DNA from: a virus
Reading direction: 5' to 3' (one strand)
Virus record (IMG/VR): IMGVR_UViG_3300031539_000056
Location: 1-48,314 of that record
Length of the DNA stretch: 48,314 nucleotides
Positions 1 through 48,314 of this stretch are shown here, piece by piece. Both the position numbers and the translations under genes were made by a program. The notes beneath the pieces are model-generated. The model searched no databases, had not been told where the DNA came from, and saw only the letters and a list, made by a program, of their open reading frames with translations. How positions within the stretch are numbered: position 1 is the first letter of the stretch; every line of letters begins with the position of its first letter.

Positions 1-174
1 ATATTGTAATTTTACAGTCATTTCAAAAGATATAATATTATTATTATTAATTTTATATTGCCCCACCCTACTACCCCCTTAACAGAATATTCAATTTTTA
101 TTCATTATTATTATACTACATTTTAAATTAAAAAACCCTTATTTTTGTCAAATATTTTTAATAATCAAGAGGAT
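1..174. other. A/T-rich left end without a gene
   Basis: No open frame with a ribosome binding site is visible. On the minus strand a TTGACA hexamer (146-151) is followed by weak TTTAAA-like sequence, so a promoter reading off the left end is possible but poorly supported. If the molecule is circular, this stretch joins the regulator region at the right end. Confidence 0.4.
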
Positions 175-330
175 TTATTTTGCCTTTTTTGACCTTTTCC
201 TTTTGTATGGCATATAATCAATCCCTGGGAATTTCTCGTCTAAATCAAGGCCACCTTTAACATTTAGGAAAGGATTTTTATCATCACTTCCCGTGGGCCC
301 GATCTTATCATTAATTTTTTTCTTTCTCAT
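175..330 (-). CDS. 51-aa basic protein, paralogue of the N-terminal part of the 25.3-25.6 kb protein
   Basis: Starts at an ATG with a good ribosome binding site (AAAGGTGATG). The frame contains KNPFL, then LDLDEKFPGIDYMPYKRK and a basic tail. The protein encoded at 25307-25618 has the same order of motifs (KNPFL, then EEFPGIDFMPYEKKK), and an 18-nt stretch around KNPFL is identical in DNA. It is the last gene of the left-end cassette and lies directly downstream, in the minus direction, of NNACC array A. Function unknown. The shared motif suggests it binds the same partner as the head-region paralogue. Confidence 0.65.
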   Translation of the reverse strand: MRKKKINDKIGPTGSDDKNPFLNVKGGLDLDEKFPGIDYMPYKRKRSKKAK

Positions 331-362
331 AATGATCATCACCTTTGATTTTTAAATATTAC

Positions 363-376
363 CTGCCCAAAGGTAG
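363..376 (+). other. Hairpin heading NNACC array A
   Basis: CTGCC-CAAA-GGTAG, a 5-bp stem with a 4-nt loop. The third pair is G-T, which is acceptable in a plus-strand RNA but becomes C-A on the minus strand. Exactly 4 nt (376 to 381) separate it from the first NNACC unit. The preceding sequence ATTAC is shared with the hairpin at 1056-1069. Confidence 0.6.
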
Positions 377-380
377 TCCC

Positions 381-440
381 GTACCACACCGCACCTTACC
401 GCACCACGCCAGACTCAACCTAACCCTACCTTACCGCACC
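381..440. repeat. Degenerate pentanucleotide array A, (NNACC)12
   Basis: Twelve contiguous 5-nt units in strict phase. Ten are exactly NNACC and the other two are ACGCC and AGACT. The first two bases vary freely while ACC is held. The array fills the space between the end of the RAMP-like gene (452) and the leader of the 51-aa gene (330). Read as minus-strand RNA it is a GGUNN repeat. No coding role is apparent, because a 5-nt period changes frame every unit. Confidence 0.85.
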
Positions 441-451
441 ACAAATTTTTA

Positions 452-979
452 TTACTTAAATCTTATTACTTCAAATCTACCAAAATGGGGTCTCCAATCC
501 CCAATTCCGACAAACTTTCCAGCATAATCAACTATCTCTTTTAGAATATCCTTTAGCATTGAATCATCCATAACCAACAAATTAAATTCTGCTTCCCAAC
601 CTTTTTTAAATGCCGGTCTGCTTCTTAAAATCTGATTCCTCTGGATCTTGACAAATTCCTGATGATTGTAGTCAAAAGTTTTCTTTCCTAAAGGAATTTT
701 ATCGGGTTCAACTTCAATGGTAGCATTTATCATATCTTTATAAGTTTTTCCCATTCTACCTTTAATTTTAAAATTTACCGCTGCCTTTACCAAACCAGCC
801 CTTAATTGTTTACTGGGAATATAGCAGCCTATCTCATCATCAAAATATAAAGATTTTTCTGCTTCTTTGGAATAGTCAACTTCACCGGATTTTTGTCTTG
901 AATTATCTTCTTCAAAAGGTCTTTTATGCTGTAAATAATCGGCAATTCCCTTGATTTTTACTTGAACCTCGTAAGCCAT
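452..979 (-). CDS. Putative single-domain RAMP/Cas7-like protein
   Basis: A 175-aa protein with a strong ribosome binding site (AAAGGAG). It opens with a beta-strand-like segment (VQVKIKG, residues 5-11). Residues 53-67 (YIPSKQLRAGLVKAA) resemble the 'iPGSSLkGalRsa' segment of RAMP proteins. Residues 158-171 (GIGDWRPHFGRFEV) resemble the glycine-rich C-terminal motif of Cas7-type RAMPs. No cas genes or CRISPR array accompany it. It lies between NNACC arrays A and B and shares a promoter with a VSR-like nuclease. The RAMP assignment rests on motif pattern only. The safer label is 'conserved phage protein with a GIGDWRPxFGRFEV motif'. Confidence 0.55.
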   Translation of the reverse strand: MAYEVQVKIKGIADYLQHKRPFEEDNSRQKSGEVDYSKEAEKSLYFDDEIGCYIPSKQLRAGLVKAAVNFKIKGRMGKTYKDMINATIEVEPDKIPLGKKTFDYNHQEFVKIQRNQILRSRPAFKKGWEAEFNLLVMDDSMLKDILKEIVDYAGKFVGIGDWRPHFGRFEVIRFK

Positions 980-1023
980 CGTTTTTCTCCTTTCTTATTA
1001 TTTTTGGACAAGTTTTATGACTT

Positions 1024-1048
1024 CGACCATACCAAACCACACCTGACC
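1024..1048. repeat. NNACC array B1, five units
   Basis: Five perfect units (CGACC, ATACC, AAACC, ACACC, TGACC) followed by AAATT. No convincing hairpin precedes it, so it looks like a 5'-truncated copy. Its end, CACCTGACCAAA, is identical to the end of array B2, which points to duplication. It sits 45 nt upstream of the RAMP-like start codon. It is in the same 5-nt phase as B2 (1024 and 1074 differ by 50). Confidence 0.8.
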
Positions 1049-1055
1049 AAATTAC

Positions 1056-1069
1056 CCGCTTAAAAGCGG
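1056..1069 (+). other. Hairpin heading array B2
   Basis: CCGCT-TAAA-AGCGG: a perfect 5-bp stem with a 4-nt loop, preceded by ATTAC. Compared with the hairpin at 1155-1168, stem pairs 2 and 5 change from T-A to C-G and from C-G to T-A. These are compensatory changes that support a real stem. Exactly 4 nt follow before the first array unit at 1074. Confidence 0.65.
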
Positions 1070-1073
1070 TTGC

Positions 1074-1143
1074 CCACCGAACCTCGCCTTACCACACAAA
1101 ACCTCATCGCACCGCACCATACCGGACCCCACCTGACCAAACC
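1074..1143. repeat. NNACC array B2, fourteen units
   Basis: Fourteen contiguous pentamers. Eleven are exactly NNACC and the exceptions are TCGCC, ACACA and TCATC. It ends with CACCTGACCAAACC and then TTAAATT, directly before the next hairpin module. It is noncoding on both strands as far as I can see, and lies between the nuclease gene and the RAMP-like gene. Confidence 0.85.
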
Positions 1144-1154
1144 TTAAATTATTC

Positions 1155-1168
1155 CTGCCCGAAGGCAG
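1155..1168 (+). other. Hairpin heading array B3
   Basis: CTGCC-CGAA-GGCAG: a perfect 5-bp stem. The loop reads TTCG on the minus strand, so a minus-strand RNA would carry the very stable C(UUCG)G tetraloop. A 4-nt linker (TTCC) separates it from the first unit at 1173, as in the other two modules. Confidence 0.65.
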
Positions 1169-1172
1169 TTCC

Positions 1173-1227
1173 TTACCACGCCTCACTGCACCGAACCCCG
1201 CCGCACCCTATCAAACCGTACCATACC
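1173..1227. repeat. NNACC array B3, eleven units, running into the nuclease gene
   Basis: Eleven pentamers, seven exact NNACC. The exceptions ACGCC, TCACT, CCGCC and CTATC keep the purine-pyrimidine pattern. Positions 1183-1227 also encode about the last 14 residues of the VSR-like nuclease on the minus strand. The array has therefore grown into, or replaced, the end of that gene, and its weaker consensus here may reflect that. Confidence 0.8.
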
Positions 1228-1602
1228 ATAGAAGTATTTTTTTAATAACTTCCTAAACTTCGGATTATCTAAATCGTTAACTATAGTATTAATTAATCTT
1301 AAACAATTTATGCCATTTTCTTTACAAATTAAATCCTTCTTTTTATCTCTAACTTTTTGTTTTGGATCACTAATATGGAAAAATCCGCCAGGCTCAATAA
1401 TACTTGTTAATTTCCCATGTCTAAAAATTGCTATATCTGCATGTGAATTATTATTCCAGAATGATTTTAGCCATTGATTTTTTGGCTCTGGGAATAGTTC
1501 TTTTAATGGTATTTTTATTTTAAATTCTAATCGGGGAAATTCATTTGTTAAATGAAAATATAATTTTTTTATTACTTCTTCGTCATCTTGTATCTTGATC
1601 AT
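1183..1602 (-). CDS. VSR/DUF559-like endonuclease-fold protein
   Basis: 139 aa. Residues 55-103 follow the pattern of very-short-patch-repair and DUF559 nucleases: ADIAIF (Asp56), then SIIEPGGFFH (Glu70, His76), then KQKVRDKKKD and GINCLRL. In these families the acidic residues coordinate metal for DNA or RNA cleavage. The usual Lys after Glu is replaced by Pro-Gly-Gly, as in other 'EpGG' members. The C-terminal tail, from about residue 126, is encoded by NNACC repeat units. It is third in the cassette driven by the promoter at 1970-1999. Nuclease activity is inferred. Confidence 0.6.
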   Translation of the reverse strand: MIKIQDDEEVIKKLYFHLTNEFPRLEFKIKIPLKELFPEPKNQWLKSFWNNNSHADIAIFRHGKLTSIIEPGGFFHISDPKQKVRDKKKDLICKENGINCLRLINTIVNDLDNPKFRKLLKKYFYGMVRFDRVRRGSVQ

Positions 1603-1969: not shown

Positions 1970-1999
1970 ATTATATAATAAAAGATATTCATTTGTCAA
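1970..1999 (-). promoter_or_regulatory. Strong sigma70 promoter for the left cassette
   Basis: On the minus strand TTGACA (1994-1999) and TATAAT (1970-1975) are both perfect hexamers separated by 18 nt. This is the best match to consensus I found in the window. It gives a short leader containing the GGAGGAGATG ribosome binding site of the first zinc-ribbon gene. Confidence 0.8.
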
Positions 2000-21563: not shown

Positions 21564-22826
21564 TTATTCTATATAAGCCCATTTATATTTATAGCATTCT
21601 GTGGGGCAAGACCCAATATAATCAAGAAAATCTTTAGTAGAATATGGGCTAATTCTTATGCCATTATTATTGGGTTGCCAAGTTGTTTTAAAATTAATTT
21701 TATTTAATTTATTTATTAACCATTTTACATTTTCTATTAAAAATCCTTCAGTAGCTAATCTTATATAAGGATTTCCTTGTTTTTTTCCTTTAAATTTAGG
21801 ATGCGATAAAGACCCATCACCGATATACCATTGCCTGCAAGTCAAAGGAGTTAATTCAATATCTCTTGGCACTATTTTTTTACCATTGGGATACCATTTT
21901 TTTCTAATAGGTAAAAGTCCAGCATAACGTCGACTAGAATAAGAATAAGAATAACTATTTGATTTTTCATGATATCTTTTATTTATTTTCCCAGATTGTT
22001 CTATCCCAAAAGATTTTAGGGTATTAGAAATATATTGTATATACTCCAAATATCTAGAACTATATTGAAAAGTTGCCGAACAAGAATTTATAGTTTGTAT
22101 ACTTCCATCTCCAAGTAATTCTCCATTTATCCATTCTTTTGCTCGAAAGGGTATGTCATAATGATTGCCTGTTTTCAGATGGATTGCTTCTGCATCAGAA
22201 CGAATAGGAATATTAAATTTAGATAACCAATAACCTATACTCACATCAGATATATTACATAATTTACCGATTTGAGGCATAGATAATTTTTCTTTTATAT
22301 ATTTATTTTCTAACCAATCTTTATCTTTATATTTCTCCTGTCTATATATATTAAATTTATGTAACCATTTGCCTATAACAGATGAGCCTCTTCCAATCTG
22401 TTTGCCAATTTTTATTGTAGATAATCTCTCTTCAATATATTTTTGATATAACCAATCTCTATCTTGATATAATCTTTCCTCTGTCTCACTATGTAAAGGG
22501 ATATCAAATTTATGTAACCAACAATATATAGTTTCACGTGTTACTTCACATAATCCAGCAATCTGAATCGAAGATAATTTCTCATTCAAGTATTTATTAT
22601 ATAGCCAACTTTTATTACAATATTGTTTATTTTTTTGATTATTTTTACCACGCAGAATTCCACTTTCTCTTCGAGAGCGAAGGGTTATACCAAATTTTTT
22701 TAGCCAATATTTTACAACCCCATCAGTTGTTTCATATTTATTGGCAATTCTACATATAGATAATCTTTCCTCTATATATTTTCGCTTTAGCCAGTCTTTA
22801 TTTTGATATAATTTTTCTGTTTTCAT
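21564..22826 (-). CDS. Free-standing LAGLIDADG homing endonuclease with four HTH repeats
   Basis: 420 aa. Residues 11-50, 74-113, 124-162 and 170-210 are four copies of a helix-turn-helix unit (pattern DWLxxKYIxExLS then IG/IA and WLxKFxIxxR). Two LAGLIDADG-type helices follow (WINGELLGDGS at 232-242 and WYIGDGSL at 333-340). The enzyme should cut a long specific site; the HTH repeats probably add specificity. It has its own promoter and sits as an insertion between structural genes. No intron was recognised around it. Confidence 0.88.
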   Translation of the reverse strand: MKTEKLYQNKDWLKRKYIEERLSICRIANKYETTDGVVKYWLKKFGITLRSRRESGILRGKNNQKNKQYCNKSWLYNKYLNEKLSSIQIAGLCEVTRETIYCWLHKFDIPLHSETEERLYQDRDWLYQKYIEERLSTIKIGKQIGRGSSVIGKWLHKFNIYRQEKYKDKDWLENKYIKEKLSMPQIGKLCNISDVSIGYWLSKFNIPIRSDAEAIHLKTGNHYDIPFRAKEWINGELLGDGSIQTINSCSATFQYSSRYLEYIQYISNTLKSFGIEQSGKINKRYHEKSNSYSYSYSSRRYAGLLPIRKKWYPNGKKIVPRDIELTPLTCRQWYIGDGSLSHPKFKGKKQGNPYIRLATEGFLIENVKWLINKLNKINFKTTWQPNNNGIRISPYSTKDFLDYIGSCPTECYKYKWAYIE

Positions 22827-25307: not shown

Positions 25308-25618
25308 TATGGCTCGAATTTTTCGCCACTGCTTTTAGCAATAATAAATCCCTGTTTTATGGCTTTAAGTTTTGCGGCCGCCTGAGACTCCTTATTGCCA
25401 GCGGTATATGTATAACATTTACCCGAACCATATTGCCAGCCAGGTTTGTTTTCTTTTGTACAGCGTTTTAATGGCATATTTTTCACCTTCTTTGTTTTTT
25501 TAATTTTCTTCTTTTCATAGGGCATAAAATCGATACCTGGGAATTCTTCAACGAGCTCTAAACTGCCATCGGGTTTTAGGAAAGGATTTTTATTTTTATC
25601 TTTTTTTATTTTAGTCAT
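25307..25618 (-). CDS. Two-part basic protein with a possible internal start
   Basis: 103 aa. Residues 1-47 (KNPFL..., EEFPGIDFMPYEKKK) are related to the 51-aa protein at 175-330. The rest (MPLKRCTKENKPGWQYGSGK, then KLKAIKQGF) is a widespread phage domain usually starting with MPLK. A good ribosome binding site (AAGAAGGTGAAAAAT) precedes the internal MPLK ATG, so a shorter form may also be made. The two parts look like a fusion. Role in head assembly suggested by context only. Confidence 0.7.
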   Translation of the reverse strand: MTKIKKDKNKNPFLKPDGSLELVEEFPGIDFMPYEKKKIKKTKKVKNMPLKRCTKENKPGWQYGSGKCYTYTAGNKESQAAAKLKAIKQGFIIAKSSGEKFEP

Positions 25619-27282
25619 TATTTATTCAACCACCTTTTATATTTTATTCCAAACTTTTCGGCAAATGTCTTCATTGCTTCATGAGTATGCATTTGACTTG
25701 TTACTTTTGTTGCGTATTCTGTTATTTCTTCATAGCGCTCATTCGATATTCTACCATATAAGGATACCTCTTTTTTTATTATCTTATCTTTAGTTGAATT
25801 ATACATTGTTTTATATTTATCTTGTAATATACTATTTTCTACTCTCAAAAGATCTTTTACTTCGGCCCCGGAATGTGGAAACTTCGTACTTTCTATTATT
25901 TTAGCGCTATATTCGTATTTAGTCCCTACTGCCCTTATTTCAGTTCCTCTTTTATATGCTCCTAACATATTAAGATCATCTCCAGAAAAACTGCTCCCGG
26001 AAGGATGATTATGTGTAAATAGCATATTATCGACATTCATTTGATTGAATTCTTCCGCTGTAAATTTTACATAATTCCTGGCACCAGATTTTTCAAGTAC
26101 TATATTTCCTTTTGTGTCAACCGCGATACAATGTTCTATTTTTGCATCAGCGTATTTATTATTAAATTCTTTTATTCTCATTAATTGCATATTTGTTTTT
26201 GGGGCCCCGGGTATAGTTGCAACCGCTTGTGGTATGTTTTCTTTAAGTATAAGATCTTTTGTAAAATTGTCTTTAATCCAATATGGTATATTCTTATACC
26301 CCGCTATTGTTTTAGCATTTATATTTAACCAGTTCTGGGCATTCGCAGGTATTTTTGTAATATAATTAGACTGGTCGATTTGGCCAGTTTTCATAAACTT
26401 TAAAGAGTCCTTATCATTTAGCATAATTGAAGTTGTATAACATAAGCAACCAACGTGCCAGGTCATAAATATAAAACCTTTTGGATATATCCCGACTAGA
26501 TCATCGCACATGTCGAGCTGGGGATGAGAAGCCGATAAATGAACCTCTATCCCGGTTACAAACGGTAACTGCTGCCTTCTTGTATAATCGCTCATGCGAT
26601 AGGCCATGTTTATTTCATTTTTGGAAAGCCTTAATGCATTTTTATAAGAGCTTCTATAGATACCCGCTCCCGGATGATAACCTTTGGCCGCCTTACTTAA
26701 AACAAGTTTCCCTTCCTGTCTGACTCTTCTAAATAATCTATTCGGTTCATTCAAATATTGCTTAATATCTCCCGCAATTTCAGCCGCGCTTCTCCCAGTA
26801 GATATTCCCGAGGCAAGATAAAGTTCTAATTGATCCTTCGCTCCATTAGTTAGATTCCAGACCCGTTCACTCAGGTTCATTCCCGCTTCGGTCCGGTTAA
26901 GAAAAGTATCCAGCGCTGCCAAGTTTAATTGATTAAACGAAGGTGATACAAGATCTTTGTTTAGTTTTATTCCTTCGGCCCAGGTCCCCACCATTTTATT
27001 ATTCTTAAGATTGGCCATATCCCAATGGCTGACAATCCCTTCTTGTATATTAGTCTGAATATCTTTATTGAGTTTATTTAAGATTATATCTATCCGTTTT
27101 TCCAGTCCTTTATTCATTTTATAGAAAGAGCCCTGGAATATTCTAGTCGGATTTTTCAATTCAAAAATAGCAGTTTTCATTGCTAAATCCCTGGACGCCT
27201 GGTTCAATACTGCTTCGATTTTTCTGTTGCGTATGATCATGTCCAGCATATTCCTGTTTTCGAATTGATCTTCAATGCTCAT
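25618..27282 (-). CDS. MuF-type minor head protein with C-terminal JAB/MPN-like domain
   Basis: 554 aa. The middle (about 150-290) has the features of SPP1 gp7/Mu F head-morphogenesis domains, including ASHPQLDMCDDLVGIYPKG and TWHVGCLCYTT. Residues about 380-450 form a second domain with HCIAVDTKGNIV and THNHPSGSSFSGDDL (His424, His426, Ser433, Asp436), the metal-binding pattern of JAB/RadC-like isopeptidase folds. MuF proteins often carry C-terminal toxin or enzyme domains delivered with the virion. Cleavage target unknown. Confidence 0.8.
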   Translation of the reverse strand: MSIEDQFENRNMLDMIIRNRKIEAVLNQASRDLAMKTAIFELKNPTRIFQGSFYKMNKGLEKRIDIILNKLNKDIQTNIQEGIVSHWDMANLKNNKMVGTWAEGIKLNKDLVSPSFNQLNLAALDTFLNRTEAGMNLSERVWNLTNGAKDQLELYLASGISTGRSAAEIAGDIKQYLNEPNRLFRRVRQEGKLVLSKAAKGYHPGAGIYRSSYKNALRLSKNEINMAYRMSDYTRRQQLPFVTGIEVHLSASHPQLDMCDDLVGIYPKGFIFMTWHVGCLCYTTSIMLNDKDSLKFMKTGQIDQSNYITKIPANAQNWLNINAKTIAGYKNIPYWIKDNFTKDLILKENIPQAVATIPGAPKTNMQLMRIKEFNNKYADAKIEHCIAVDTKGNIVLEKSGARNYVKFTAEEFNQMNVDNMLFTHNHPSGSSFSGDDLNMLGAYKRGTEIRAVGTKYEYSAKIIESTKFPHSGAEVKDLLRVENSILQDKYKTMYNSTKDKIIKKEVSLYGRISNERYEEITEYATKVTSQMHTHEAMKTFAEKFGIKYKRWLNK

Positions 27283-27770: not shown

Positions 27771-27941
27771 TTAAATCTTCACTATTTTTCGAATTAATTC
27801 ATCGCAAAAACATCTAAAATCGCCATAATTTATAGTACCCTCGGCATAATCATATTTTATAGTTACTTTGATTGAACCATCCTCTTGTAATTTAGCATTC
27901 TTTAGTTCAGCTATAATAAGTTTTATATTTTCTTTTGTCAT
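27771..27941 (-). CDS. 56-aa hypothetical protein
   Basis: MTKENIKLIIAELKNAKLQE, then KVTIKYDYAEGTINYG and two cysteines near the end. Very good ribosome binding site (AAAGGAGGTGAAAT). ATGA overlap with the dehydrogenase-like gene. No family recognised. Confidence 0.65.
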   Translation of the reverse strand: MTKENIKLIIAELKNAKLQEDGSIKVTIKYDYAEGTINYGDFRCFCDELIRKIVKI

Positions 27942-28747
27942 ATTTCACCTCCTTTCATACATAATGTCCCTCTCTCCAATAAATTTATATTTTCTTTATC
28001 GGCCATTATCATTACCTCAGGTGAAATTCCCTTCTTCCTTGCTGCCTTAATCAAAAATTTAATATCCTTGCTCAAACATTTACCTCCAGCCCCCCTATAT
28101 CCATCAAATAATGGATCGAGATGCATTACATTAATATATTTGTCTAATTTAAAAGCCTCGAATAATTTATAATAATCTGCCCCGTATTCCTGGCATATAT
28201 CGTATAGTTCATTCCCGAATACTACTTTTATGGTATACAGACTATTCAGGGCCACCTTTAATAATTCTGCTTCTATCGGTTTCATCATTATTATCTTATT
28301 TTTATTATCAACCACACGCTCGAATAGTCCTTTGAATATCTCGAATACTTCTCTTTTTCTGGTCCCTACAATTATTTTATCAGGGCAGATTTCATCTAAG
28401 AACGCTGTCCGTTCTCTTAAAAATTCTGGCAAGTAGACAAATTCTCTTTTATACCATTTTATAAAATTATCTATCGTTCCTGGAATTATAGTAGATCTTA
28501 TAGCGATTATTCCTTTTCTATTTTTTAAATTTATATAACCTAATGCCGTCCTAATATCTTCGAATTCCATATCGGCCTTGGTGGGTACGCAAACAAACAC
28601 AATTTCACATTTAGAAATATCATCAGTAAAGCCTTTGGCCGGATCATGTTTCTTGACAATATGCCCCAAATCCTCCAATAGTCCGCTGAGACTATTCCCG
28701 ATAACTCCGCAACCCACTACAGCAAGATTCATTCTGTTATGCTTCAT
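27938..28747 (-). CDS. UDP-sugar 6-dehydrogenase-like protein, short form
   Basis: 269 aa from the ATG at 28747 (ribosome binding site AGGTGA). An NAD-binding Rossmann motif (NLAVVGCGVIGNSLSG), VFVCVPTKAD, RSTIIPGTI and GGKCLSKD with the catalytic-type cysteine match the UDP-glucose/GDP-mannose dehydrogenase family. At 269 aa it lacks the usual C-terminal substrate domain (families are about 400 aa). It may make or bind a nucleotide sugar for the phage's glycosyltransferases. Confidence 0.8.
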   Translation of the reverse strand: MKHNRMNLAVVGCGVIGNSLSGLLEDLGHIVKKHDPAKGFTDDISKCEIVFVCVPTKADMEFEDIRTALGYINLKNRKGIIAIRSTIIPGTIDNFIKWYKREFVYLPEFLRERTAFLDEICPDKIIVGTRKREVFEIFKGLFERVVDNKNKIIMMKPIEAELLKVALNSLYTIKVVFGNELYDICQEYGADYYKLFEAFKLDKYINVMHLDPLFDGYRGAGGKCLSKDIKFLIKAARKKGISPEVMIMADKENINLLERGTLCMKGGEI

Positions 28748-30116
28748 ACGATTCACCTAATTTTGATAATTTTCCCCGTTCTTCTTCCAGTCTCTTGATA
28801 TCTTCTTCTGAATCTTCTACTAGTGGATTTTGTCTTACTGCTTCCTTTTCGCTCATGATGACATCGCCCGCTCTTGCTGTTGAAAGTGCTTTTATAAGTT
28901 CCGACATATCCTGAGGTAGAATATTCCCGAATTTAATTGATATATCTAGCTCCTGTAAATTCTTTGCTTCATTTAAATTAGTTATAGATAATATTGCCTT
29001 TAATAAATTGATTCTCCTGGTCAATGATTCTCCGAATAGTTCTTCTTTGTCTTTCGCTTTTAAAATAGCATCCATGAAAATGAATTTGAGGGCTTCTCCT
29101 GAGGTTTTCGTAAGTCCTTTGACGTTATTAAAAGATAAATCGGGGGTTGAAGTTATAGAATATATAATATCTTTTAGAGTCTCGTATTCTAATTTTATTG
29201 CTTCCGGAGCGTTCTTCCAGGTTAAATATGTGGCGTCTCCATACTCGGTTTTGCCTTGTGGATCGGTTTCTCCAGTAAATTGCAACATCCTTCCTACTTC
29301 CCCTTTCTCTGGGGGGTTGGCCAGTTTACCCTTTATTTTTAATAGAGGTGCTCCAAAATAATCATTTGTATCGGCAAATTTAGAAATTAGCATTTCACTT
29401 CTATCAATTTCAGTTTGAACACTCGTCCATTCCGGCTCATCCTGTTCGTAATAAATTACTGGGATCTTCTTGAATAAATTGTCTTTTTCTTCTACTATCC
29501 AGTCAGTTTTTTTGATCCCATAGTAAAATTTTCCAGCGGTGTAAATATCGACATGTTCATAAGTTTTACCGTCAATATCTTCAAGTTTATACCGGCGGGT
29601 AAAGGCATCCATATCTCCGTTTTCGTTAAAATGAATATAAATATCATCGCCATTTTTCTTACATAGTAGGGACACTTTAATATATTTGTTATTTTCATTA
29701 TCGATTATTGTATACCAGAGCTCGGCCACCTTTGTTTCTATAAATAATCTTCGCGCCAGCTTTTTATTGAAATAATCTAATTTGTCTTTTTTCCAGATAT
29801 CATCTATTAGAGAAAAGGTCCCCTGGTATTTTTCCTCTTTATTCCCTAATATTAATTTCACTGGATCGCCGAATAAAAAAGATACGGCCATATTGACGAT
29901 TTTCTTTTGATATTGGATGACTTCTTTTGCCTGGGTAATTATCTTCGATGTTGCACCCTTGCCGATAACTTTATCTTCCCGTTCTTTGATTGTATGTTCG
30001 CCGGTATATTGTTTCTCATATAACTCAACGTCTCTTTCCTTTGGGTCCTTACATAAGATCTCTGTTAATTTCTTAAAATCCTTGCCGTGCATTTTTAAAA
30101 TATCTTCTATCTTCAT
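28737..30116 (-). CDS. Portal protein (SPP1-like)
   Basis: 459 aa from the ATG at 30116 (ribosome binding site AAAGGAGAATATC). The N-terminal part (KIITQAKEVIQYQKKIVNMA, then FLFGDPVKLILG) and the later DLSFNNVKGLTKTSGEALKF are typical of SPP1/A118-type portals. It forms the dodecameric DNA entry ring. Directly downstream of the large terminase and followed by head genes. Confidence 0.88.
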   Translation of the reverse strand: MKIEDILKMHGKDFKKLTEILCKDPKERDVELYEKQYTGEHTIKEREDKVIGKGATSKIITQAKEVIQYQKKIVNMAVSFLFGDPVKLILGNKEEKYQGTFSLIDDIWKKDKLDYFNKKLARRLFIETKVAELWYTIIDNENNKYIKVSLLCKKNGDDIYIHFNENGDMDAFTRRYKLEDIDGKTYEHVDIYTAGKFYYGIKKTDWIVEEKDNLFKKIPVIYYEQDEPEWTSVQTEIDRSEMLISKFADTNDYFGAPLLKIKGKLANPPEKGEVGRMLQFTGETDPQGKTEYGDATYLTWKNAPEAIKLEYETLKDIIYSITSTPDLSFNNVKGLTKTSGEALKFIFMDAILKAKDKEELFGESLTRRINLLKAILSITNLNEAKNLQELDISIKFGNILPQDMSELIKALSTARAGDVIMSEKEAVRQNPLVEDSEEDIKRLEEERGKLSKLGESYEA

Positions 30117-47650: not shown

Positions 47651-47743
47651 ATCAAGCCTCCGTTTAGGTCCTTATAGCTAATAAGCAAAGTCCCCGGGGT
47701 TGGCGGGTGAGAAATCATTAGCTCAACCTTGCGGAGGCTTGAT
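47651..47743. ncRNA. Structured leader element, pair of 38055-38141
   Basis: A perfect 12-bp closing stem (ATCAAGCCTCCG with CGGAGGCTTGAT), then an AGGT/ACCT pair, then a 7-bp stem (AGCTAAT with ATTAGCT) around a GC-rich loop containing CAAAGTCCCC. Shared pieces with the element at 38055-38141 are GTTTAGGT, ACCTTGC and CAAAGTYC. It lies in the 5' leader of the early operon on the minus strand. No known riboswitch class recognised. Confidence 0.55.
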
Positions 47744-47761
47744 TCTTTTCTAAATAAAAAA

Positions 47762-47836
47762 AGCCAAATAAAAAAGCCCGGATACATACAGGCAAGCGTC
47801 AAACCTGTATCTTTTATCCGAGTTAATTATTTGGCT
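47762..47836. terminator. Nested terminator hairpin
   Basis: Outer stem AGCCAAATAA/TTATTTGGCT, then CGGATA/TATCCG, then ATACAGG/CCTGTAT with an 11-nt loop, ending in a T-run on the minus strand. Resembles the AGCC/GGCT element seen at 5553, 21449 and 31796 but lacks the AGAGCTCC box. It could terminate or attenuate early transcription. Confidence 0.6.
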
Positions 47837-47860
47837 ATATTCTATTTTAAATTTATTTTA

Positions 47861-47875
47861 CTTACATCTGGTAAG
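47861..47875. promoter_or_regulatory. Operator-like dyad, copy 1
   Basis: CTTACATCTGGTAAG, a 5-bp inverted repeat just downstream of the early -10 box. A near-identical half (CTTACATATGGTA) lies in the promoter of the regulator gene at 48235-48247. Likely bound by the 47995-48213 product. Confidence 0.6.
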
Positions 47876-47885
47876 CATATGATAT

Positions 47886-47914
47886 ATTATAGGACGTTGT
47901 TAAATCTCTAAAAA
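47886..47914 (-). promoter_or_regulatory. Early promoter
   Basis: TATAAT (47886-47891) preceded at 17 nt by TTTTTA, a weak -35. Overlaps the dyad region, so regulation by the neighbouring HTH protein is plausible. Confidence 0.45.
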
Positions 47915-47994
47915 AATGTTACCCGGATACCCTCCACTTATTCAATTGTGGTAATCTAAGGGCATTTGAGTATCATAACGCTTTTTCCCCTTTT

Positions 47995-48213
47995 TCATTT
48001 TAATTTAATTATTATATTATCTATAATTGCCCTGGTATTCTCGCTTTGTGGTGCAGTCTTACCTTGTTGGTATCTGTTATATGTGCCGTAACTCACTCCG
48101 AGAAAATGAGCCATTGCGGTGGGACTTATATCATGTTTTTGAGCTAGAGTAACCAGTTTTTTTATTCTCTCATCTTTTATTTTTGAAATATCTATTTCAA
48201 TTCTTTTTCCCAT
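47995..48213 (-). CDS. Cro/XRE-like transcription regulator
   Basis: 72 aa from the ATG at 48213 (MGKRIEIDISKIK; ribosome binding site GGAGAGTAAAT). The helix-turn-helix ISPTAMAHFLGVSYGTYNRY fits small Cro/XRE proteins. No dimerisation domain is attached. It probably represses its own promoter and the early promoter through the two CTTACATNTGGTA sites. Confidence 0.75.
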   Translation of the reverse strand: MGKRIEIDISKIKDERIKKLVTLAQKHDISPTAMAHFLGVSYGTYNRYQQGKTAPQSENTRAIIDNIIIKLK

Positions 48214-48230
48214 ATTTACTCTCCATAAGA

Positions 48231-48259
48231 ATAATACCATATGTAAGAATAAATTGCAA
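48231..48259 (-). promoter_or_regulatory. Promoter of the regulator with an operator in the spacer
   Basis: TTGCAA (48254-48259), 17 nt, TATTAT (48231-48236) on the minus strand. The spacer contains the CTTACATATGGTA site (48235-48247 in the reverse sense), which resembles the dyad at 47861-47875. Confidence 0.65.
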
Positions 48260-48314
48260 ATATTTTTTGAAAATTATTAAATTAGTTATTATAATTTAAT
48301 GCATCCCTAAGATT

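What the first reader, a model, noticed from the sequence alone, without database searches (positions are those of the whole stretch)
363..1227. Degenerate NNACC arrays with covarying hairpin heads around a RAMP-like gene
Four blocks (381-440, 1024-1048, 1074-1143, 1173-1227) total 42 contiguous pentamers, 33 of them exactly NNACC. The two leading bases take 14 of the 16 possible dinucleotides, which slippage alone would not produce; something holds ACC every fifth base while leaving NN free. Three blocks begin exactly 4 nt after a 5-bp stem with a 4-nt loop. Known pentamer repeats are usually identical copies. A guide-like, filament-binding or protein-counting role is inference.
Basis: partly seen in the sequence, partly recalled or inferred. 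Interest (0 to 1): 0.9.

Follow-up and report, generated by a model that had tools for sequence, protein, structure and literature searches.

The report
Phage VIPR guide-RNA locus (GGY/NN repeats)
The odd five-letter repeats are the genes of three small guide RNAs of a recently described phage weapon called VIPR, and the code in one of them spells out, almost perfectly, a gene of a sister phage, so the phage most likely uses it to shut down rivals.

Summary
Read on the strand of the neighbouring genes, the units are GGYNN and each hairpin is a 3' tail. This is a VIPR locus (preprint PMC13142463): a Vipr protein (window 452-979, minus strand), three vrRNAs of 11, 14 and 12 repeats, and a PD-(D/E)XK-like accessory gene. 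The protein matches the experimentally studied SUSP1 Vipr, including PDB entry 36pp (E about 1e-15). Relatives keep the repeat frame and the tail hairpin (compensatory changes in all five pairs) while NN differs between guides. Decoding NN with one skipped base finds a target for vrRNA A: 21 of 22 letters in a small gene of a sister phage that has no VIPR; none of 1000 shuffled guides reached 20. That gene sits where the window carries the VIPR cassette, and the window keeps only its last 13 codons. Guides of two relatives hit sister phages equally well. The fourth block (1024-1048) is not a guide: it is a short repeat in the vipr leader with largely conserved NN, role unknown. New member of a known kind, with covarying hairpin tails and a nuclease-like partner.

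The parts
452..979 (-). vipr gene (175 aa), RAMP homologue
   Evidence: BLASTP 27% identity over the length to SUSP1 Vipr, E=2e-20; profile match to PDB 36pp 'SUSP1 Vipr protein' E=8.9e-16; both in phrog_4652
1173..1227 (-). vrRNA A repeat tract, 11 GGYNN units; code AT AC TT AG GC GG TC GC GA GT AA
   Evidence: target 21/22 in a sister phage with 1-nt skip
1154..1172 (-). vrRNA A 3' tail, GGAA + 5-bp hairpin, 4-nt loop
   Evidence: covariation across 15 tails
1074..1143 (-). vrRNA B repeat tract, 14 units; code TT CA GG CC AT GC GC GA TT GT AA GA TC GG
   Evidence: no target found
1055..1073 (-). vrRNA B 3' tail hairpin (CCGCT/AGCGG)
381..440 (-). vrRNA C repeat tract, 12 units, downstream of vipr; code GC AA AG TA TG CT GT GC AA GC GT AC
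   Evidence: no target found
362..380 (-). vrRNA C 3' tail hairpin (CTACC/GGCAG)
1024..1048 (-). five GGTNN units in the vipr 5' leader; NN of units 1, 2, 3 and 5 the same in the window and four relatives; not a hypervariable guide
1183..1602 (-). accessory gene (vap): PD-(D/E)XK / DUF2726-VSR-like protein; conserved part ends near 1225, the ORF runs on into vrRNA A
   Evidence: homologues in seven relatives; model pLDDT 87.5, best fold matches BstEII, TnsA, DUF2726 and VSR endonucleases
1970..1999 (-). perfect sigma-70-like promoter (TTGACA-18-TATAAT) upstream of the cassette
   Evidence: consensus scan only
161..199 (-). last 13 codons left of the gene that vrRNA A targets in the sister phage
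   Evidence: 12 of 13 residues identical to the C-terminus of L341:5576-5785; DNA homology to the sister stops at about window 200

Best explanation
The locus is a phage-borne VIPR system. Transcription on the minus strand yields the accessory nuclease-like gene, vrRNAs A and B, the vipr gene and vrRNA C. Each vrRNA is a tract of GGYNN units capped by a small 3' hairpin. Vipr subunits hold the GGY letters and present the NN letters, which pair with DNA of a competing phage while one target base is skipped between dinucleotides (the codon wobble base); bound complexes silence the target gene, and the nuclease-like partner may add cutting. Shown here: protein homology, locus anatomy, repeat periodicity, hypervariable NN, covarying tail, and one-skip matches of three guides of this clade (one from the window) to sister phages. 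Taken from the published SUSP1 work: RNA expression, Vipr binding, DNA recognition and silencing. Inferred: that the same happens in this phage, and any cutting.
For: Vipr homology to SUSP1 Vipr (E=2e-20; PDB 36pp E=8.9e-16; phmmer 2.4e-14, the only hit; shared phrog_4652). Units per guide 11, 14, 12, inside the published 9-16 (PMC13142463). GGYNN arrays lie next to a Vipr ORF in IMG/VR: 65 of 145 loci with strong arrays, 63 of 65 on the same strand, median distance 28 bp, against 2 of 76 weak-array loci and 0 of 111 control loci. Tail hairpin: all 5 pairs with compensatory changes, 97.3% paired, 0/500 shuffles. Code: among 27 clade guides against 0.81 Mb of sister and clade phage DNA, skip 1 gives three 21/22 matches (vrRNA A of the window, L123_4, L277_1), none of 3000 shuffles above 20; no such match at skips 0, 2, 3. 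All three targets are in coding sense with the skipped base at codon position 3. In 3.6 Mb of unrelated DNA the same guides reach only 17-18 of 22 at skip 1. Own genomes are avoided: best self matches 15, 17 and 16 of 22.
Against: No target was found for vrRNAs B and C. The structure prediction of the window Vipr is unusable (pLDDT 37.6), so the RRM, G-loop and thumb were not seen directly. No transcript data. The tail is a plain hairpin of varying sequence, unlike the invariable, pseudoknotted tail described for the SUSP1 clade.
Confidence: 0.95

Rival explanations
1. A TRAP-like regulatory element: a ring protein counts GGY triplets spaced by two free bases in a leader RNA next to a stem-loop, and NN carries no information.
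For: Triplet plus 2-nt spacer with a neighbouring hairpin is the layout of TRAP sites (own knowledge). Block 1024-1048 does sit in a leader with conserved sequence.
Against: The triplet is GGY, not GAG/UAG; the neighbouring protein is a Vipr RAMP; NN spells matches to sister-phage genes at a single skip length only, which a mute spacer would not.
Confidence: 0.02
2. A fast-evolving satellite repeat made by slippage, selfish or neutral.
For: Over 347 GGYNN arrays, neighbouring units share NN about twice as often as expected (0.147 against 0.072), so slippage or duplication contributes somewhere.
Against: Conserved placement and strand beside vipr in many phages, covarying tail, high NN entropy of 3.89 of 4 bits, and target matches.
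Confidence: 0.01
3. A VIPR locus that is decaying: the guides are relics, block 1024-1048 is a broken guide, and the system is inactive.
For: Nine of 42 units deviate from NNACC; five units with no tail at 1024-1048; two of three guides have no found target.
Against: Vipr is intact and conserved at 74-96%; deviating units also occur in all close relatives; vrRNA A still matches a sister phage at 21/22; the leader block is kept in four relatives.
Confidence: 0.05

Closest known systems
VIPR of Escherichia phage SUSP1 (type II; PMC13142463, PDB 36pp)
   Same: Homologous Vipr protein; vrRNAs of 9-16 GGY/NN units up- and downstream of vipr; structured 3' tail; 1-nt skip code; targets in competing mobile elements; a small accessory gene.
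   Different: Tail here is a 5-bp hairpin with a mostly 4-nt loop whose stem sequence differs from guide to guide, not an invariable pseudoknotted tail; the accessory gene is PD-(D/E)XK-like, not the gene beside vipr in SUSP1 (phrog_5926); extra GGTNN mini-array in the vipr leader.
VIPR types III-V (PMC13142463)
   Same: Accessory gene predicted to be a nuclease or other DNA enzyme.
   Different: The paper finds types III and V enriched in host defence islands; this one is in a phage. The type could not be assigned because the supplement was not available.
Class 1 CRISPR-Cas (Cas7/Csm3 RAMP filaments)
   Same: RAMP subunits on a guide RNA with periodic unpaired bases (from PMC13142463).
   Different: No CRISPR repeat-spacer array beside the locus and no cas-like hit for either gene; the guide is gapped GGY/NN.
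TRAP-binding leader RNAs (own knowledge)
   Same: Triplet motif with 2-nt free spacers beside a stem-loop.
   Different: Motif, protein and function all differ.

Membership tests
VIPR | Vipr RAMP protein | tested here: met
VIPR | RRM core, G-loop and thumb in the Vipr fold | tested here: inconclusive
   model pLDDT 37.6; the conserved GIGDWRPHFGRF stretch aligns with SUSP1 Vipr
VIPR | vrRNA of 9-16 YNNGG repeats with conserved GGY | tested here: met
   11, 14 and 12 units
VIPR | hypervariable NN among related loci | tested here: met
   the guides of the seven closest relatives all carry different NN strings; NN entropy 3.89 bits over 347 arrays
VIPR | structured 3' tail after the repeats | tested here: met
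   hairpin with compensatory changes in 5 of 5 pairs; not invariable in sequence as in SUSP1
VIPR | target code with 1-nt skip | tested here: met
   vrRNA A, L123_4 and L277_1 at 21/22, skip 1 only, none of 3000 shuffles above 20
VIPR | targets in competing phages, skip base at wobble | tested here: met
   targets in sister phages, codon phase 1, sense strand; for vrRNAs B and C none found
VIPR | minimal locus with one vap gene, mostly in phages | tested here: met
   vap-like gene beside vipr in the window and seven relatives; phage head, tail and terminase genes in the window
VIPR | vrRNA expressed and bound by Vipr; DNA binding and silencing | not testable with these tools
   needs experiment
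VIPR | assignment to one of the seven types | not tested
   criteria are in the paper's supplement, not available here
CRISPR-Cas class 1 | array of identical repeats and unique spacers with several cas genes | tested here: not met
   no such array beside the locus; no PADLOC or NCBIfam hit for either gene
TRAP leader | GAG/UAG triplets and a TRAP protein | tested here: not met
   triplet is GGY; neighbour is Vipr

The most novel reading that the evidence does not exclude
The five largely fixed GGTNN units in the vipr leader (1024-1048) are a Vipr-binding site through which free Vipr represses its own mRNA, so that Vipr output is matched to the supply of vrRNA; a built-in feedback not mentioned in the text of the VIPR preprint.
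Probability: 0.25. Interest if true: 0.65.

Novelty: new member of a known kind. Interest (0 to 1): 0.55.

Why it matters
VIPR was described in 2026, with the code worked out mainly on one E. coli phage and one Pseudomonas prophage. This window gives an independent, distant clade in uncultivated phages in which the one-base-skip code can be read from sequence alone, with a target for the window's own guide. It also shows a simple way to spare oneself: the gene that guide A attacks in the sister phage has been replaced in this phage by the DNA stretch that holds the VIPR cassette. Two relatives aim at a sister phage's head gene and at a sister VIPR accessory gene. That makes phage-against-phage use directly testable with a short hairpin-tailed guide.

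Tried and rejected
Scanning IMG/VR for exact 8-unit seeds of vrRNAs A, B and C with 1-nt skip: 5, 39 and 2 stretches, none extending beyond the seed; the A target found later was missed because its one mismatch lies in the seed. Genome-collection scan for close Vipr relatives: none. AlphaFold model of Vipr from seven similar sequences: too poor to use, so no fold search was made with it. Weak guide matches not counted as shown: L277_4 (18/20, 3 of 1000 shuffles as good), L278_1 (15/16, 9 of 1000; it does fall in frame in the accessory gene of three relatives), L279_1 (32/44), and L281_1 at skip 2 (20/24), which stands alone. A first target search with all 347 guides was swamped by low-complexity guides that match equally well when shuffled; these were filtered out. 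The leader code CA GT TT .. CG read as a guide: no match in the window or in the held stretches of the four relatives. Rfam: no match in the window. Host: the terminase has relatives at 27-61% identity, mostly in Bacillota (Clostridia, Bacilli) but also in Cloacimonadota, Chloroflexota and others, so the host stays open.

Full report
What was checked. The signal is far from chance: best in-frame score 11 against at most 3 in 300 shuffles of the region, and nothing on the other strand anywhere in the 48 kb.

What it is. A literature search turned up one paper, PMC13142463 (bioRxiv 2026.04.26.720920), describing VIPR: a RAMP protein, Vipr, with vrRNAs of 9-16 YNNGG repeats, a 3' tail, and a code in which NN pairs with DNA with one base skipped. 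Reading the window on its gene strand gives exactly this: GGYNN tracts of 11, 14 and 12 units, each followed by G[GC]NA and a 5-bp hairpin.

The protein. Window 452-979 (minus) is 27% identical over its length to the Vipr of phage SUSP1, both fall in phrog_4652, and a profile of its clade finds one significant solved structure, PDB 36pp, 'SUSP1 Vipr protein', E=8.9e-16 (phmmer 2.4e-14). My own model of it is too poor to judge the fold.

Relatives. Vipr homologues at 31-96% identity were found in IMG/VR. In those with arrays, every array is on the vipr strand. In a wider set, 65 of 145 loci with strong arrays hold a Vipr ORF, 63 of 65 nearest arrays on the same strand, median distance 28 bp; 2 of 76 weak-array loci and 0 of 111 controls do. 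Array loci without a Vipr include many single arrays, some of them simple repeats, and fragments cut near the array.

Tail. Fifteen distinct tails with a 4-nt loop show compensatory changes in all five pairs, 97.3% of cells paired, covariation 0.564 against at most 0.20 when slid, 0 of 500 shuffles. The stem differs between guides of one genome, so structure is kept rather than sequence. In the SUSP1 clade the paper describes an invariable tail with a pseudoknot; this is a difference.

The code. Twenty-seven guides of the window's clade were decoded with skips of 0-3 and compared with 0.81 Mb of clade and sister-phage DNA. Three match at 21 of 22 letters, all at skip 1: vrRNA A of the window in sister phage G028 (L341:5705, minus), L123_4 in the minor head gene of sister phages (the window itself matches at 20/22), and L277_1 in the accessory gene of VIPR phage L278. 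In 1000 shuffles each, the best were 19, 19 and 20. All three lie in coding sense with the skipped base at codon position 3 (for the latter two; for vrRNA A, whose target ORF L341:5576-5785 reads ITFSAGSAKVK there). In 3.6 Mb of unrelated DNA the same guides reach 17-18 at skip 1. Self matches are 15, 17 and 16 of 22; for L123_4 and L277_1 the self match is the phage's own copy of the target gene, with 5 and 6 mismatches. Four further matches are weaker and are listed under what was rejected.

Self and non-self. Sister phage G028 (52.6 kb, no vipr match) aligns at 94-97% to both ends of the window: 47723-48314 and 1-200. Homology stops at window about 200. In G028 the gene there is the 69-aa target of vrRNA A; the window keeps its last 13 codons (161-199, minus) and then carries other DNA with the VIPR cassette. 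Homology resumes at about window 2030. So the phage lacks the site its guide attacks because that stretch has been exchanged.

Accessory gene. Window 1183-1602 has homologues in seven relatives. Its model (pLDDT 87.5) matches BstEII (E=9e-4) and, weakly, TnsA and VSR-like enzymes in the PDB, and phage DUF2726 and VSR endonucleases among viral models. The invariant residues H54, D56, E70 and K89 fit a PD-(D/E)XK-like fold (my reading), but the usual (D/E)xK lysine is replaced by E-P-G, so activity is uncertain.

The fourth block. Positions 1024-1048 are five GGTNN units 45-70 nt upstream of the vipr start. Units 1, 2, 3 and 5 are identical in the window and four relatives, in a 19-nt invariant run longer than any in the vipr gene of the same five phages (14), although the 25-nt block as a whole is no more conserved than the best tenth of that gene. 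It has no tail and no matching site in the stretches searched. Two more distant relatives (L279, L280) lack it. Autoregulation is my guess, not shown.

Expression. A perfect sigma-70-like promoter lies at 1999-1970 (minus), upstream of the cassette; a single transcript is plausible but not shown.

Verdict. VIPR membership is as firm as sequence can make it. The kind is known; the clade, its hairpin tails, its accessory gene and its targets add to it. Whether it is one of the seven published types could not be tested.

Noticed in passing
window 1-200 and 47723-48314: Both window ends are contiguous in sister phage G028 (L341:4630-5618) with about 200 bases between them, so the window is nearly a complete, circularly permuted genome.
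   Followed up: partly
window 26824 (minus), in gene 25618-27282: The window's own minor head gene is a 20/22 match for a guide of a relative (L123_4), so this phage is itself a likely VIPR target.
   Followed up: yes
window 28079 (minus), in gene 27938-28756: A UDP-glucose/GDP-mannose dehydrogenase-like gene between head genes carries an 18/20 match for guide L277_4; also present in other sister phages.
   Followed up: partly
L341:1050-4203 and L343:9764-11864: Both ends of contig G028 match the same window stretch (about 44.06-45.6 kb) at different identity, either a duplication or an assembly join.
   Followed up: no
L145, L183, L069, L046, L078: VIPR loci with many arrays (9-18 strong arrays per locus), some with constant spacers between blocks; L183 lies on a 112-kb contig.
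   Followed up: no
L047, L137: The only two of 65 loci in which the nearest array is antisense to the Vipr ORF.
   Followed up: no
window 21564-22826: A 420-aa homing-endonuclease-like gene (HNH and LAGLIDADG family matches) between structural genes.
   Followed up: no
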